Below, piece by piece: positions 21,323-28,834 of a stretch of DNA of 64,000 nucleotides. Source of the stretch: G963667425 sp963667425 [NCBI: bacterium] (GTDB lineage Bacteria > UBP6 > UBA1177); the NCBI GenBank assembly GCA_963667425.1, contig OY763407.1, positions 2,046,001 through 2,110,000 of the forward strand, written 5' to 3'. A program made the position numbers and the translations under genes. The first letter of the stretch is position 1. Each line of letters starts with the position of its first letter. The notes below the pieces were generated by a model. The model did not search any database. It was not told the origin of the DNA and saw nothing but the letters and a program-made list of their open reading frames with translations.

Positions 21323-23449
21323 TTATTCACTTCTTAGCTGTTGTTGTACTCCGTTATTTCCCTTATTACCATCACTCTCTCCACCTTTACCAGCAGCTCC
21401 CAAAACAAAGGATGCTTTAGAAACATCTATTTGTGAAGATTCTATCATAATTACACCAATAGAAGGACCGCCGCCACCGCCGCCGCCAGCTCCACCAGCT
21501 CCACCAGCTCCACCGTTGCCTCCAAAACCGCCGCAACCTGCATCGTCCTGATCAGAACTATATGCACCTGGAATACCGCCATTGCCACCTGTACCACCTG
21601 TGCCACCAACGCCACCTGTGCCGCCATTACCACCTGTACCGGTTTTTATTTCTGTGTAATCAAAATATATTTTCATAGACGAATTTACCCATACAGCAAA
21701 TGAACCGCCACCACCAGCTCCACCAGTACCGCCAGCTCCACCACATCCAGCTCCTCCACCACCACCGCCGGCAGAACCGTATGTTGAACAGTCACTAAAA
21801 GCATTGTTATCTTTGTGTCCTTTTCCACCGCCACCGCCGCCACCGGAAACACCTCTCGTTCCTTCCAAACCATCCCCTCCTTTAGAGGGAATATATGAAG
21901 AAGAATCGGCATAACCAAAAGCACTGCCAGCCTGACCATCATCACCTGCATCTCCATTATGACCATTTCTTCCATTTGCAGCATATGTGGGAATTGGGTT
22001 TCCATCCGTTGAACAGGAAAGATCACTAGTCAAAGTTCCGCCTGTACCAGTATTTATTCCATTATCCTGACCCTGAAGATTGTTGTTTGAACCTTCAACA
22101 CCTTCTGAACCGTCGTAGCCAGGGTATCCGCCATCGCCACCTTTTGTTCCACATGCCGAATAACCTCCCGAACCGTAAGCAGGCTGACTACAGTTTCCAC
22201 CACAACCAATAAGGTCATCATCACTTTCACAGCCTGGAGCTCCAGTTCCACCATTACTACCAGAAGCTCCTGTAGCACCTGTAATACCGTCAAGACCTTT
22301 TTTGCCATTTCCTGAAACTATATAGGAATGTCTTATGGAAATGTTCATACTACTGTTTATAAAAATACCATAGGAAGATTCCCCATTTTCCTCAGCATCA
22401 TCAGCATTAATAGAAATATATGTCATTTCAATATTTTCACATTGAGAAATTATAACAGGTTTGTTAGAACCTTTAATTGTAACAAAATTTGAAGTAGATC
22501 TTACCCAATCAGGATAACCGCTATAGCCACCATAAAGGGATACATTGCTTTTTAGCGTTACTGGTCCGTCATATTCACCTTTTGCAATAAGTATTGCAGG
22601 TTTATATTCAGCTGTTGCAAGCACTAAAGCTTTTGTTATACTTCTGACAGGAAGATCTTTTGTTCCTTCATTAAGGTCACTGCCATAAACTGAATCTACA
22701 AAAATAGATTTTTCAATGTTTCCATCTATTCCGTCACCATTACTGTCTATAAAGTTATCGTCAGGTTTGTCTTCTGTTATATTAGGTTTTGTTTCACATG
22801 TTGATGTGTCAAATCTAACGCAGTTTGCTGTACAGTAGGCTGTTCCTCCTGAAAATGTGGAAGAATCTATCAGCGTGCATAGTCTGGAATTTCCATCACA
22901 AACCTCATTAGCCTGAATTGTACCGTCACCACAGGTAGTAACAACAACATCACTGTCTGGAAGAGCATTGTCATCATCAGAAAAATCTTCATCAGATTCT
23001 ATATCTAAATCAGGATCAATATCAGTAAAAATATCAAGATCATCTTTTTCAATATCTGAATCCATATCGTTTTCAGAATCTGAAACAGGTATATCTTCAT
23101 CGTTCATATAATCTTCATCATCAATCAAAGAATCATTATCAATATCAGGAATTTCAGCATAGTCAGCATCAAAAACGGCTATATCTTCATCATTTCTTTC
23201 TCCAGGTCTGCAATAGCCATCTGTTGCACAATAAAAACCATCAAGGCATGCATCGTTTGTCATGCATGTATACAATGTTGAACATTCTCCTTCTTTCACA
23301 CCTGTGTCATTAACCTTTCCAGCAGAAAAATCACAGTATGTTCCTGTTTTGCATTCGGTATCATTAAGGCATGTGTTATCTGTTTTTTTATCATCACATG
23401 CAGAAACAAAAAATAAAAGCAATGTGATAAAAACTAAATAAAACTTCAT
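21323..23449 (-). CDS. Gly-rich, Cys-rich surface lipoprotein with acidic linker and beta-helix-like region
   Basis: A 708-residue lipoprotein. Start 23449 is chosen because GAGG lies seven bases upstream and it yields a clean signal ending in FFVSAC (Cys18). Order: a Cys-rich EGF/Dickkopf-like part (about 26-88) with C-x-N-D-x-E-C and CLDGFYC; an Asp/Glu-rich linker of ~80 residues (about 90-170); a CGDGTIQANEVCDG motif of the DUF4215 type; a DUF1565/pectate-lyase-like beta-helix part (DSVYGSDLNEGTKDLPVRSI, then SLYGGYSG, about 250-380). Last is a Gly-rich tail (about 385-690) with collagen-like G-x-x runs and stretches such as GGGGGGGKG. It is likely an exposed surface protein with unknown function, under its own promoter. 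Confidence 0.8.
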   Translation of the reverse strand: MKFYLVFITLLLFFVSACDDKKTDNTCLNDTECKTGTYCDFSAGKVNDTGVKEGECSTLYTCMTNDACLDGFYCATDGYCRPGERNDEDIAVFDADYAEIPDIDNDSLIDDEDYMNDEDIPVSDSENDMDSDIEKDDLDIFTDIDPDLDIESDEDFSDDDNALPDSDVVVTTCGDGTIQANEVCDGNSRLCTLIDSSTFSGGTAYCTANCVRFDTSTCETKPNITEDKPDDNFIDSNGDGIDGNIEKSIFVDSVYGSDLNEGTKDLPVRSITKALVLATAEYKPAILIAKGEYDGPVTLKSNVSLYGGYSGYPDWVRSTSNFVTIKGSNKPVIISQCENIEMTYISINADDAEENGESSYGIFINSSMNISIRHSYIVSGNGKKGLDGITGATGASGSNGGTGAPGCESDDDLIGCGGNCSQPAYGSGGYSACGTKGGDGGYPGYDGSEGVEGSNNNLQGQDNGINTGTGGTLTSDLSCSTDGNPIPTYAANGRNGHNGDAGDDGQAGSAFGYADSSSYIPSKGGDGLEGTRGVSGGGGGGGKGHKDNNAFSDCSTYGSAGGGGGGAGCGGAGGTGGAGGGGSFAVWVNSSMKIYFDYTEIKTGTGGNGGTGGVGGTGGTGGNGGIPGAYSSDQDDAGCGGFGGNGGAGGAGGAGGGGGGGPSIGVIMIESSQIDVSKASFVLGAAGKGGESDGNKGNNGVQQQLRSE

Positions 23450-23482
23450 ATAAGACCTCATAAATTTAAATTATGCAGAGAA

Positions 23483-23528: not shown

Positions 23529-25262
23529 TTATTTAGGACGAATACCGGGAGTTACCTCTTTTTCATACCACTGAAAATTATCAAGAAGAACTGTTGTGTC
23601 ATATGAATGATCCGGTCCATATGGTACTGAGCCTGTTTCCCATACTGCAAATCTAAGTGTGATTTCTTCTCCTGGAACTACGTTTCCTGAAGCAGCAAAC
23701 CAACCGGTTCCACCATGTCCATCACATTGTTTTCCTATTATAGGAATTGTTGTACATTCATACTGAAAACCTGTTCCAGCAAGTTCTTCAGGCTGTTCAC
23801 ATGCGTCACATTCGCCATTTTTGTTTCCACCGCCAATTCCTCCAATGCCTGAACCAGAGCAACCTTCTTTATCACATCTTCTGAAAATTCCATTAGGAGC
23901 TATGCTAACACCCATTGGATTTTTCTTATCATCAACAGCCATATTTTTATCCCAGTTATTTTTTCTTTCACTATTGGGGTTAACTTCATTAAATGTTGAA
24001 TCCAGAAGCGCTATAAAGAAATCGTTATATTCTGTGCAGACAAGACCGGGAAATTCAATTGAAAAAAAGTAAAAATCAAAAGAAAAAGCATTGGCATTTA
24101 TTGGAACCTTCATTTTAACTGTCAGCATTATAGGATCCTGAACTGAAGGACTTTCTGTTCCACTACATTGATCGTCAAGCTCTTCAGTTGAAATAACACC
24201 TTCACCTTTACATGCTTCAGATTCAGGAAATTTACAATTTTTCTGACGATTTATCCAGTCTGTTGGCACTTTACTTGCTGTTTTCATATCTCCGGCATCC
24301 AATGTAGCTTCACTGGCATTCATTGTAGGAGAATTGTAAGGACCAGTTGAAAGTATTGTCAAAAGGTCACTCTTATTTGCGGTTATAACATTACCAAATT
24401 TATTTGCAACGGCATATGTTTTATATTTGTCATCAAAATATGGTTCCGTAAGACTTGGTCTCTGAATTTCAGGAGGCAGCTGTGAGTTTCCATCTGAACC
24501 CTGTGTGGCAGGACCATCACAGATACTTTCAGTAACAGGATCTCCTGCCAGAGAAAGTGTTGCTGAAATATAACCTTCACAAGTATCCATTGCTTTAGCT
24601 AAATACTCTCCATTGTTTTTAATTCCGGACATTGAAACACCTGAATCACAGGTTACTACTTCATCTATTTCACCATTACTATTATCATCAAGTCCATTAT
24701 TTGGCACTTCAAAAGCATTTGGATTTATTAATGCAGGATCATGTCCCGGACACTCTTCCGGAATGTCACAGGCATCATTTTCACATCTTATATAACCGTC
24801 ACCATCCTGATCGGTATGTGCAGGAAGATTATCAGGATTACCATCACAATCAGAATCAATACCATCCACTTCACATGCTTCAGGTTCCGGATTAATTTGC
24901 TCACTACATTCAGTCCATCTTCCATCAGCACCGCAAAGAGATGTTCCTGCTTTACAAATGCCTACGTTTTCCATTTCCGCTGTACCAACCCACTCGCATT
25001 TTTTTGTTTCTCCAGGGGTACATTCCATTGTCTGAGGATCATTATCCGGTTGAGTGTTTGAATCATTATCAGATGTATCATCAGGATTTTCTATGATAGC
25101 ATCAGCATCACTTAAAACTTTTTCGCAAACATTTGTACTTTGATTACACACTTCATTTGTGCCACAATCTTCATTTGTTTCACATTCCAGCGCATCATCT
25201 GATGATGCACAGGATAATGTAAAGACTAAAAAAAACAGTGTAAAAATAAGACCTAACTTCAT
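23529..25262 (-). CDS. MopE-like/choice-of-anchor-L-type lipoprotein, paralogue A
   Basis: A 577-residue lipoprotein (lipobox TLSC, Cys18), third in transcription order of three tandem paralogues. Order: a short Cys knot ECETNEDCGTNEVCNQST; an acidic linker; CTPGETKKCEWVG and CGADGRWTEC with several Cys; a MopE-like metal motif with D-x-D-G-D-G-Y, DPALINPNAFE and NGLDDNSNGEIDE (about 140-205); then a ~350-residue C-terminal domain like choice-of-anchor L, with CEGYISATLSLAG, FSFDFYFFSIEFPGLVC, DFFIALLDS and a final TVLLDNFQWYEKE. Compared with its sisters it has an extra insert (about 248-270, SDGNSQLPPEIQRPS) and a GIGGIGGGN loop. Function is unknown; surface adhesion or Ca-dependent binding is a guess. 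It has its own promoter. Confidence 0.78.
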   Translation of the reverse strand: MKLGLIFTLFFLVFTLSCASSDDALECETNEDCGTNEVCNQSTNVCEKVLSDADAIIENPDDTSDNDSNTQPDNDPQTMECTPGETKKCEWVGTAEMENVGICKAGTSLCGADGRWTECSEQINPEPEACEVDGIDSDCDGNPDNLPAHTDQDGDGYIRCENDACDIPEECPGHDPALINPNAFEVPNNGLDDNSNGEIDEVVTCDSGVSMSGIKNNGEYLAKAMDTCEGYISATLSLAGDPVTESICDGPATQGSDGNSQLPPEIQRPSLTEPYFDDKYKTYAVANKFGNVITANKSDLLTILSTGPYNSPTMNASEATLDAGDMKTASKVPTDWINRQKNCKFPESEACKGEGVISTEELDDQCSGTESPSVQDPIMLTVKMKVPINANAFSFDFYFFSIEFPGLVCTEYNDFFIALLDSTFNEVNPNSERKNNWDKNMAVDDKKNPMGVSIAPNGIFRRCDKEGCSGSGIGGIGGGNKNGECDACEQPEELAGTGFQYECTTIPIIGKQCDGHGGTGWFAASGNVVPGEEITLRFAVWETGSVPYGPDHSYDTTVLLDNFQWYEKEVTPGIRPK

Positions 25263-25312
25263 AGCCGGACTCCTGCCTAAATATTATAAGAGTAAAACAC
25301 CAATTATTGATG

Positions 25313-25340
25313 AGTATATAACATTAATAAATAAATTCAA
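25313..25340 (-). promoter_or_regulatory. Promoter of paralogue A
   Basis: Minus-strand TTGAAT (25335-25340), 16 bases, TATACT (25313-25318). A TATAAT at 25283-25288 also lies closer to the start but lacks a matching -35. Confidence 0.6.
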
Positions 25341-25389
25341 CATGAAAAAATAATATTTTTTACAGAAATGTTGAAAAATATTTGATTTT

Positions 25390-27027
25390 TTATTTAGGGC
25401 TTATACCTGGCTCAACTTCTTTTTCATACCATTTAAAATTATCAAGAAGAACTGTAGAATCAAAAATGTGATCCGTTCCGCCATCCCATATTGCAAATCT
25501 AAGAGTTATCTCTTCACCAGGAACGACATTACCAGAAGCCGAGAACCAGCCTGTACCGCCATAATTTATAGTGTCCATTCCAAAGAGACCGCCTGTTTCA
25601 CTCTCAAAACCGGTTCCTTTAAGCTCTTCAGGCTTCTCACAGGCATTACATTCGCCATGAGTATTACCACCTACACCAATAATTCCAGCAGAACCTGAAC
25701 AAACATCTTTATTACATCTTCTAAAAATACCGTTAGGTGCAATGTTTACACCCATTGGATTTCCTTTATCATCAACAGCCATATTTTTATCCCAGTTATT
25801 CTTTTTATCACTATCAGGATTTACATCATTAAATGTTGAATCTAAAAGAGCAATAAAAAAATCGTTAAAAGCTGAACAGACGTAACCAGGGAATTCTATT
25901 GATAAAAAGTAAAAATCAAAAGAAAAGGCATTGGCATTGATAGGAACTTTTACTTTTACAGTAAGCATTACAGGATCCTGTACTGAAGGAGCATCTGTAC
26001 CTGTACACTGATTATCAAGCTCTTCTGTAGAAATTGTTTCTCCACAGGCTTCTGATCCTGGAAATTCACAATTTTTCTGTCTATTCATCCAATCAGAAGG
26101 AACTTTACTGGCTGTTCCAAGGTCTCCTGAAGAATCCGATGTAGGAGAATCATAATCTCCAGAGGAAAGAATTGTCATCAGAGAACTTCTAGCAGGCATT
26201 ATTGAATTACCAAATTTATTAGCCACAGCATAGGATTTTGAAGAACTATCAAATTTAGGCATTGAAGCACTTCCTGAGTCGGCTTCTCCTGCTAACGAAA
26301 TTGTTGCAGAAACGTAGCCTTCACAAATATCCATGGCTTTAGCAAGATATTCACCATTTCCTTCAAGCCCTGTCATTGAAACACTGCTGTCACATGTTAC
26401 AACTTCATCAATTTCACCATTGCTGTTATCATCTATACCATTATCAGCAACTTCAAAAGCATTCGGATTTATCATTGCAGGATCAAATCCAGGACACTCT
26501 TCAGAAATATCACAGGCATCATCTTCACATCTAAGAAAACCATCGCCGTCCGCATCTGTATGTGCAGGAAGATTATCAGCTTCACCATTACAATCAGAAT
26601 CAATATCATCGGCTGTACATGCCTCTGGCTCTGGATTTACCTGACCGGTACATTCAGTCCACCTTGCGTCAGCTCCGCATACAGAAGTTCCGGCTTTACA
26701 TATTCCAACATTTTCCAGCTCTTCACTCCCAATCCAAGCACATTTCTTTGTTGTTCCAGGAGTACAAGGTTCATCTGAATTATCAATATCAGGAGTTTCA
26801 GAAACAGCATCTGCATCCGGCAAGGATTCATTATCAGCAACGACATCCAAGTCCTCAGAAGCCTGATCATAGTCTGAAACCTCAGCAATATTTTCACAAA
26901 TATTTAATGAGAGATTACATACTTTCTCTGAAGGACAATCTTCATTGGATTCACATTCAAGATTATCTTCTGAAGGTGCACAAGAAACGACACCTATAAA
27001 AAATAAAATCAAAAAAACATATTTCAT
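25390..27027 (-). CDS. MopE-like/choice-of-anchor-L-type lipoprotein, paralogue B
   Basis: A 545-residue lipoprotein (lipobox GVVSC, Cys16), middle copy of the tandem set and the shortest. The domain plan is the same: SNEDCPSEKVCNLS, acidic linker, CTPGTTKKCAWIG, CGADARWTECTGQVNPEPEAC, then D-A-D-G-D-G-F and NGIDDNSNGEIDEV, and the anchor-L-like domain with FSFDFYFLSIEFPGYVC and DFFIALLDSTFNDV, ending in NFKWYEKEVEPGISPK. Relative to A and C it lacks most of the insert between the SLAGE and YAVANKFG segments. It lies 33 bases after copy C with no clear promoter between, so the two are probably co-transcribed. Role unknown. Confidence 0.78.
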   Translation of the reverse strand: MKYVFLILFFIGVVSCAPSEDNLECESNEDCPSEKVCNLSLNICENIAEVSDYDQASEDLDVVADNESLPDADAVSETPDIDNSDEPCTPGTTKKCAWIGSEELENVGICKAGTSVCGADARWTECTGQVNPEPEACTADDIDSDCNGEADNLPAHTDADGDGFLRCEDDACDISEECPGFDPAMINPNAFEVADNGIDDNSNGEIDEVVTCDSSVSMTGLEGNGEYLAKAMDICEGYVSATISLAGEADSGSASMPKFDSSSKSYAVANKFGNSIMPARSSLMTILSSGDYDSPTSDSSGDLGTASKVPSDWMNRQKNCEFPGSEACGETISTEELDNQCTGTDAPSVQDPVMLTVKVKVPINANAFSFDFYFLSIEFPGYVCSAFNDFFIALLDSTFNDVNPDSDKKNNWDKNMAVDDKGNPMGVNIAPNGIFRRCNKDVCSGSAGIIGVGGNTHGECNACEKPEELKGTGFESETGGLFGMDTINYGGTGWFSASGNVVPGEEITLRFAIWDGGTDHIFDSTVLLDNFKWYEKEVEPGISPK

Positions 27028-27060
27028 ATCAGATGCTCCATAAAAATAATTAAATATTTT

Positions 27061-28767
27061 TTATTTAGGGCTTATACCAGGTTCAACCTCTTTTTCGTAC
27101 CATTTAAAATTATCGAGCAAAACGGTCGTATCATATGAATGATCTGTGCCATATTCAACAGATCCTGTTTCCCATAGAGCAAACCTGAGTGTTATTTCTT
27201 CACCAGGGACAACGTTTCCGGAAGCTTCATACCAGCCTGTACCGCCATGTCCTTCACATGTTTCAAAAAAGATAAATGAAGTACATTCATATTCAAATCC
27301 TGTTCCTTCAAGCTCTTCTTCATCAGCGCATGCATCACATTCTCCATAAGTATTGCCTCCTCCTGAATCCGAGCAGCCACTTGGCATACATTTTCTGAAA
27401 ATACCATTTGGAGCTATATTAACACCCATCGGGTTTCCTTTTTCATCAACAGCCATGTTCTTATCCCAATTATTTTTTTTATCGCTATCAGGATTGACTT
27501 CATTAAATGTAGAATCTAAAAGAGCAACAAAGAAATCGTTATACTGAGAACAGACAAGACCAGGAAATTCTATTGAGAAAAAATAAAAATCAAAAGAAAA
27601 AGCATTAGCATTTATTGGAACTTTTACTTTTACAGTAAGCATTATCGGATCCTGTACTGATGGAATTTCCTTTCCTTCGCACTGATTATCCAGTTCTTCT
27701 GTAGAAATCGTTTCTCCACAAGCCTCAGAGCCAGGGGATTTACAGTCTTTCTGTCTATTTATCCAGTCTGTAGGTACTTTACTTGCTGTTTTCATATCAC
27801 CGGCTTCCAGTGTAGCTTCAGTAAAGTTCATCGTTGGAGAATCATAATCACCTGTTGAAAGTATTGCCATTAAGGAACCTTTTTCTGATGTTATAACATC
27901 TCCGAATTTGTTCGCAACGGCATATGTTTTGTAATTATTATCAAAATATGGCATTGTAAGACTTGCCCTTGCACTTCCATTTATAGTTTCTGTAACCGGT
28001 TCTCCTGCAAGAGAAATTTCAGCTGAAACAAATCCGTCACAAATATCCATAGCTTTGGCAAGATACTCTCCATTACCTTCTATGCCTGTCATAGAAATTC
28101 CGGTTTCACAAATAGGAAGTTCATCTATTTCACCATTACTGTTATCATCAATTCCATTACCTGCAACTTCAAAAGCATTTGGATTTATCATTGCAGGGTC
28201 ATAACCAGGACACTCAGATTCGATATCACAGGCATCATCTTCACATCTGAAAAATCCATCACCATCAGAATCTGTATGTGCCGGAAGATTATCAGGATTA
28301 CCATTACAATCAGAATCTATTCCATCTGCCAGACATGCTTCTGCTTCAGGATTTACCTGGCCACTACACTCGCTCCACTTAGCATCAGCACCGCATATTG
28401 AATTTCCCGCCTTACAAATACCTACATTTTCAAGTTCTTCACTTCCTACCCATGCACATTTTTTTGTTGTCCCAGGAGTACATGGCTCATCAGATGTGTC
28501 AACATCAGGATCAGGCGTTTCGATAATTTCATCTTCGTCTTCATCAGGCGAAATAATATCAGGATCTGAAACAGGAATTTGCGAATCTATATCTGCAGCA
28601 GGTTCTTCATCAACTATTTCTGCTATTTCTTCACATACATTTAGAGAAAGATTACATGTTTCACCTGCCAAGCAATCTTCATTGGATTCACAGTCGACTT
28701 CATCATCTGAGGTGCAGGACAAAAATGCAATAAATATAAAAAACATTATAAGTAAACAAAACTTCAT
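27061..28767 (-). CDS. MopE-like/choice-of-anchor-L-type lipoprotein, paralogue C
   Basis: A 568-residue lipoprotein (lipobox AFLSC, Cys18), first in transcription order. Order: SNEDCLAGETCNLSLNVCEE; an acidic linker (about 38-92) rich in D/E/P; CTPGTTKKCAWVG and CGADAKWSECSGQ; MopE-like D-S-D-G-D-G-F and NGIDDNSNGEIDEL; then the anchor-L-like domain, FSFDFYFFSIEFPGLVCSQ, DFFVALLDSTF, MPSGCSDSGGGN, ending NFKWYEKEVEPGISPK. It keeps the long TEATLEAGDMKTASKVP insert shared with A. Blocks shared by all three copies look nearly identical, so duplication seems recent or converting. It has its own strong promoter. Confidence 0.78.
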   Translation of the reverse strand: MKFCLLIMFFIFIAFLSCTSDDEVDCESNEDCLAGETCNLSLNVCEEIAEIVDEEPAADIDSQIPVSDPDIISPDEDEDEIIETPDPDVDTSDEPCTPGTTKKCAWVGSEELENVGICKAGNSICGADAKWSECSGQVNPEAEACLADGIDSDCNGNPDNLPAHTDSDGDGFFRCEDDACDIESECPGYDPAMINPNAFEVAGNGIDDNSNGEIDELPICETGISMTGIEGNGEYLAKAMDICDGFVSAEISLAGEPVTETINGSARASLTMPYFDNNYKTYAVANKFGDVITSEKGSLMAILSTGDYDSPTMNFTEATLEAGDMKTASKVPTDWINRQKDCKSPGSEACGETISTEELDNQCEGKEIPSVQDPIMLTVKVKVPINANAFSFDFYFFSIEFPGLVCSQYNDFFVALLDSTFNEVNPDSDKKNNWDKNMAVDEKGNPMGVNIAPNGIFRKCMPSGCSDSGGGNTYGECDACADEEELEGTGFEYECTSFIFFETCEGHGGTGWYEASGNVVPGEEITLRFALWETGSVEYGTDHSYDTTVLLDNFKWYEKEVEPGISPK

Positions 28768-28806: not shown

Positions 28807-28834
28807 ATTATATAATTTATTAAAGAAATTTCAA
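28807..28834 (-). promoter_or_regulatory. Promoter of the tandem lipoprotein genes (copy C, probably also B)
   Basis: Minus-strand TTGAAA (28829-28834), 16 bases, TATAAT (28807-28812), about 40 bases before the ATG at 28767. Confidence 0.78.

What the first reader, a model, noticed from the sequence alone, without database searches (positions are those of the whole stretch)
23529..28767. Three tandem paralogous lipoproteins with variable inserts and a shared choice-of-anchor-L-like domain
Copies of 577, 545 and 568 residues share order and near-identical blocks but differ at the acidic linker, at one insert between SLAGE and YAVANKFG, and at a loop after GIFRRC. Two have their own promoter. 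Conserved core with variable loops in tandem suggests diversification of surface ligands, possibly with recombination between copies. Next to the Gly-rich lipoprotein it forms a 7.5-kb surface-protein island.
Basis: partly seen in the sequence, partly recalled or inferred. Interest (0 to 1): 0.62.

Follow-up and report, generated by a model that had tools for sequence, protein, structure and literature searches.

The report
Three tandem surface-type lipoproteins, old duplicates
A bacterium of a little-known candidate phylum carries three side-by-side copies of a probable surface binding lipoprotein; they are old duplicates of a family common in that phylum, with no sign of recent recombination between the copies.

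Summary
They belong to a family found strongly in 25 of 28 genomes of one candidate phylum that includes UBP6_UBA1209. Architecture: lipobox, four-Cys module, acidic linker, MopE-like module with acidic loops, C-terminal beta-sandwich. The choice-of-anchor L model matches over its cut-off in copy B only, but in 25 of 28 genomes. The trio is one clade (100/100); four other lineages show their own sister tandem copies. Recent recombination between copies is not supported: silent divergence is high and even, silent three-way sites split 54/52/47, clustering tests are negative. Selection is purifying. The variable loops vary at the same places between genomes (Spearman 0.64). Copy B is the odd one: alone of 28 subfamily rows it lacks two segments that the other 27 keep. 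No phase-variation signature was found. Best explanation: an old lineage-specific tandem expansion of surface adhesin or substrate-binding lipoproteins. Ligand and surface location are inferred, not shown.

The parts
27061..28767 (-). copy C, lipoprotein, 568 aa, first of the three in transcription order
   Evidence: ORF, alignment, NF038133 21.4 bits under the cut-off, tree
25390..27027 (-). copy B, lipoprotein, 545 aa, the short copy
   Evidence: ORF; NF038133 39 bits over the cut-off, residues 286-529; alone of 28 rows lacks two segments
23529..25262 (-). copy A, lipoprotein, 577 aa, longest insert after SLAGD
   Evidence: ORF, alignment, NF038133 22.4 bits under the cut-off
28807..28834 (-). 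sigma-70-like promoter candidate of copy C (11 of 12)
   Evidence: consensus scan, not above shuffles in number
25441..26172 (-). choice-of-anchor L match in copy B, residues 286-529
   Evidence: beta-sandwich model pTM 0.72
24648..25022 (-). Cys-rich and MopE-like module of copy A, residues 81-205
   Evidence: PF11617 under gathering score; three acidic motifs
25023..25118 (-). acidic linker of copy A, residues 49-80, variable
24459..24542 (-). variable insert after SLAGD in copy A, residues 241-268
23817..23873 (-). variable loop after GIFRRC in copy A, residues 464-482
   Evidence: low-confidence loop in the model

Best explanation
Three secreted, lipid-anchored binding proteins made by old tandem duplication in this lineage. 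Signal peptide and lipobox give a lipid anchor, probably in the outer membrane with the protein facing out (inferred). An acidic patch, a four-Cys module and an acidic linker hold it off the membrane; a MopE-like module with acidic, probably calcium-binding, loops is a stiff stalk (inferred). A C-terminal jelly-roll-type beta sandwich of the choice-of-anchor L kind carries the variable loops, likely the ligand-facing part (inferred). Copies diverged by point mutation and, in B, loss of segments, under purifying selection (shown by sequence). Most likely job: attachment to, or holding of, glycan or protein substrates at the cell surface, with the copies differing in ligand preference (inferred).
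For: Lipobox and family-wide architecture; choice-of-anchor L over cut-off in B and in 25 of 28 genomes, 0 of 14 control genomes; beta sandwich with weak likeness to MAM, adhesin and carbohydrate-binding modules; 79 of 82 members with a recognised lipobox have two or more acidic residues in the seven positions after the Cys, against 44 of 79 other lipoprotein-like ORFs, recalling the Bacteroidota surface export signal (PMC5080379, passages); trio monophyly 100/100; dS 1.18-1.34 and dN 0.18-0.23; relatives' neighbours include an IgGFc-binding lipoprotein, a PNGase F-like protein, a subtilase-like protein and a protein with a thermolysin-propeptide motif. Precedent in another choice-of-anchor domain: choice-of-anchor A lectins of Acanthamoeba bind cellulose (PMC6541295, abstract and passages).
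Against: No ligand, location or expression data. Structure models are of low confidence (mean pLDDT 59.9 and 61.3) and no structural match is significant. The acidic patch is not specific: the window's Pal-like lipoprotein also passes the test, and family members are related, so 79 of 82 is not 79 independent cases. Choice-of-anchor A and L are separate families; that they are alike in function is not shown.
Confidence: 0.6

Rival explanations
1. Antigenic-variation-style diversification: copies swap segments by gene conversion, or are switched on and off.
For: Tandem copies with near-identical blocks and variable loops; one of the compared pairs in another genome, G006 C68 7655/9316, has a nominal cluster of silent identity, p 0.032 of 24 uncorrected tests.
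Against: Silent runs not longer than in shuffles (p 0.08, 0.67, 0.76), densest 25-codon stretches p 0.59, 0.57, 0.39, maxchi p 0.41, three-way silent sites 54/52/47. No inverted repeats of 20 bases or more and no unusual tracts. Silent sites are near saturation, so very old exchanges would not be seen.
Confidence: 0.06
2. Structural envelope lipoproteins or stalks facing the periplasm, without ligand binding; loops vary because nothing constrains them.
For: Loop divergence in the trio follows divergence between genomes (Spearman 0.64); purifying selection on the core; acidic patch not specific.
Against: Repeated tandem expansion, the sandwich domain of a kind known from surface proteins (family description recalled), Cys-rich secreted make-up and neighbours with extracellular domains.
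Confidence: 0.2
3. Copper-handling proteins like MopE.
For: PF11617 matches, E 8.7e-6 to 8.6e-4, all under the gathering score.
Against: MopE's copper site uses two His and a kynurenine (PMC3423442, passages), not this motif; the matched stretches look like calcium-type acidic loops (type recalled).
Confidence: 0.04

Closest known systems
choice-of-anchor L domain proteins (NCBIfam NF038133)
   Same: C-terminal domain over the cut-off in copy B and in members from 25 of 28 genomes
   Different: N-terminal lipid anchor, Cys and MopE-like modules in front; extra segments in this subfamily push A and C under the cut-off (cause inferred)
MopE-type metal-binding motif proteins (PF11617)
   Same: the acidic D-x-D-x-D-G-like and D-x-D-C-D-G motifs
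   Different: under the gathering score; the C-terminal domain is of another kind
Bacteroidota surface lipoproteins with an export signal
   Same: acidic residues just after the lipid-bearing Cys
   Different: another phylum; exact position and preceding residue differ; not tested for export

Membership tests
choice-of-anchor L (NF038133) | score over the curated cut-off of 27 bits | tested here: met
   met by B (39 bits), not by A (22.4) or C (21.4) on their own; A and C are 70-74% identical to B over their length
choice-of-anchor L (NF038133) | significant match to a solved structure of the family | tested here: inconclusive
   no chain at E 0.001 or better; best VIA Z 7.9, rmsd 3.4 over 140 residues; no sequence match in the PDB at E up to 1
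MopE-type motif (PF11617) | score over the gathering score of 27 bits | tested here: not met
   19.9, 22.9 and 26.3 bits
MopE copper protein | copper site of two His and a kynurenine | not tested
   site taken from PMC3423442 (passages); not mapped onto these proteins
lipoprotein | signal peptide ending in a lipobox Cys | tested here: met
   LSC, VSC and LSC in A, B, C by sequence; 82 of 103 family members by a simple pattern, others mostly with mis-called or cut starts by eye
surface lipoprotein with an export signal | surface exposure | not testable with these tools
   needs an experiment

The most novel reading that the evidence does not exclude
In this candidate phylum a lipid-anchored form of the choice-of-anchor L domain has become a multi-copy surface binding system that expands by tandem duplication separately in many lineages, exported by an acidic signal after the lipid Cys like that of Bacteroidota; the trio binds different ligands, and copy B, which lost loops otherwise kept throughout the compared subfamily, has a new one.
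Probability: 0.2. Interest if true: 0.5.

Novelty: new member of a known kind. Interest (0 to 1): 0.28.

Why it matters
It gives an uncultured phylum a defined, phylum-wide set of probable surface proteins whose ligands can be tested by expression, and an example of repeated tandem expansion without signs of recent recombination. It overturns nothing.

Tried and rejected
Gene conversion: rejected for recent events. Phase variation: no support. Viral carriage: 26 stretches of viral contigs matched a pattern, none was confirmed. Plasmids: no megablast match (near mode only). Solved relatives by sequence: none at E up to 1. Conserved locus: TolB is in 28 of 28 genomes and the MMPL neighbour in 24 of 28, but among the fetched loci only G019's window-type copy lies beside Pal/TolB, with an HSP90-like gene between, so the position is not generally kept. 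Link with the Gly-rich lipoprotein: suspected from cluster c37 and dropped, because the likeness is one stretch of 55-60 residues and c37, as tested in G007, is subtilase-like; matches to the Gly-rich protein at E 1e-20 are in 17 of 28 genomes and none of the listed places lies in a stretch that I fetched for the family. Literature: 'choice-of-anchor L' 0 papers, 'choice-of-anchor' with 'domain-containing protein' 9, 'choice-of-anchor' 20; nothing on this family seen in those listings. Other listings were seen as listings only, apart from the papers cited. Fold families absent from the VIA list mean nothing either way.

Full report
What is there. Three ORFs on the - strand encode lipoproteins of 568 (C), 545 (B) and 577 (A) aa, in transcription order, 70-74% identical over their length. 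NCBIfam's choice-of-anchor L model matches all three, over its cut-off only in B; Pfam gives a MopE metal-binding motif under the gathering score. Each has a lipobox, a four-Cys module, an acidic linker, a MopE-like module with three acidic motifs and a C-terminal beta-rich domain.

Who has it. No whole genome is held for the window. One scan of genome contigs confirmed nine loci; five titles name a ruminant and one reads UBP6_UBA1209. All 9 of their genomes have 5-11 matches. In the phylum of G001, 28 of 28 genomes match at E 0.001, but G010-G012 only weakly (best 7.5e-10), the other 25 at 9.2e-127 or better. The same three lack the choice-of-anchor L domain: 25 of 28 are positive, 0 of 14 controls. 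By Ffh they are distant (44-45%); the nearest genomes are G007, G020, G019 and G005 (75-77%), with 27 of 28 genomes giving an Ffh match, so the window's own genus is probably not held. Placement in the phylum rests on this and on the locus titles, not on a species tree.

Family tree. I fetched 80 regions; some matches were not fetched, so counts per genome are lower bounds, and the genomes may be incomplete. A profile found 106 ORFs; 103 went into the tree and three under 180 bits were dropped. The window copies are one clade on a long stem; a careful tree of 40 chosen rows gives 100/100. Tandem copies that are each other's sisters occur also in G013 (100/100), G007 (100/98), G025 (93/88, not starred) and G019 C152 (SH-aLRT 99). 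Among the 103 rows I counted 16 tandem arrays, one in the window and 15 in 15 of 25 genomes; several join different subfamilies. Sister status could also come from old homogenisation of an older array; the data do not separate these for the deep past.

Recombination and selection. Fourfold sites agree in 44-49% of cases against 35-36% by chance; dS is 1.18-1.34 and dN 0.18-0.23. Runs of silent identity are not longer than in shuffles, three-way silent sites split 54/52/47, maxchi p is 0.41. Of 24 tests over 12 pairs (nine tandem, three between genomes) one is nominally positive, a G006 pair at p 0.032, uncorrected. Near-saturated silent sites leave little power for very old events. By region dN/dS is 0.03-0.14 in the MopE module, core and C terminus, and 0.17-0.52 in the N terminus and loops: relaxed, with no sign of positive selection by this crude measure.

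The variable loops. In 22 bins of 25 residues from residue 51 on (the first two bins left out), divergence in the trio follows that among 13 relatives, one per genome (Spearman 0.64, p 0.001), and within the G007 and G013 pairs (0.63, 0.66) (28 of the 103 rows). So the loops are generally free positions. Copy B stands out: of these 28 rows it alone lacks the ETGSVxYG-type loop, and it alone shows the 6-aa gap before GD; it also has the shortest stretch after SLAGE. The ten rows of other subfamilies lack the ETGSVxYG loop as well. Loss in B is the simplest reading, and probably why only B passes the cut-off (inference).

Structure. Full A with 13 rows: mean pLDDT 59.9, pTM 0.57. C-terminal domain of B with 13 rows: 61.3 and 0.72. 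Long strands make a beta sandwich and much of the variable sequence falls in low-confidence loops. Foldseek's top rows include the MAM-Ig module, the Epf adhesin, Kgp adhesins and carbohydrate-binding modules, none at E 0.001; the best VIA Z is 7.9. This fits an adhesin- or lectin-like sandwich and proves no function.

Surface and context. By a simple pattern 82 of 103 members have a lipobox; 79 of the 82 have two or more acidic residues in the seven positions after the Cys, against 44 of 79 other lipoprotein-like ORFs in the same loci. In Bacteroidota two acidic residues after a positive or polar one can suffice for export (PMC5080379, passages). The window's Pal-like lipoprotein passes the loose test too, so this is a hint. 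Neighbours in relatives include an IgGFc-binding lipoprotein with a similar N terminus in G001, and in G007 a PNGase F-like protein, a subtilase-like protein and a protein with a thermolysin-propeptide motif, whose clusters recur in part in G005, G019 and G020. UBP6 was reported among amino-acid degraders of digesters (PMC7382037, passages).

Verdict. Real and well described; an old, phylum-typical tandem expansion; recent recombination and switching not supported; ligand unknown.

Noticed in passing
window 21323-23461 (-): Gly-rich lipoprotein with a partial match to the LIC10774/LIC10365 family surface protein model (E 6.6e-11, far under its cut-off); matches at E 1e-20 in 17 of 28 genomes. 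A stretch of 55-60 residues is shared with subtilase-cluster proteins of G005, G007 and G019.
   Followed up: partly
G006:C68:44363-46075 (L102 5804-7591): A window-type family member interrupted by an in-frame TAG, at the head of a four-gene array: a decayed copy or an assembly error.
   Followed up: no
L105 (G007:C1): A PNGase F-like protein beside a subtilase-like protein and a family member, a possible glycoprotein-degrading set; the clusters recur in L099 (G005) and L137 (G019).
   Followed up: partly
L087 9854-11947 (G001:C28): IgGFc-binding-domain lipoprotein next to family members, with a similar N-terminal Cys module and acidic linker: shared front module, other C-terminal domain.
   Followed up: partly
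L004: Record titled uncultured Spirochaetales, but its genome G004 is listed in the phylum of G001 together with the UBP6_UBA1209 genome; the title is probably a wrong label.
   Followed up: no
window 25228-25235: An A8/T8 run in the signal-peptide part of copy A; such runs are common in this 34% GC window (39 of 8 or more), so no claim is made.
   Followed up: partly
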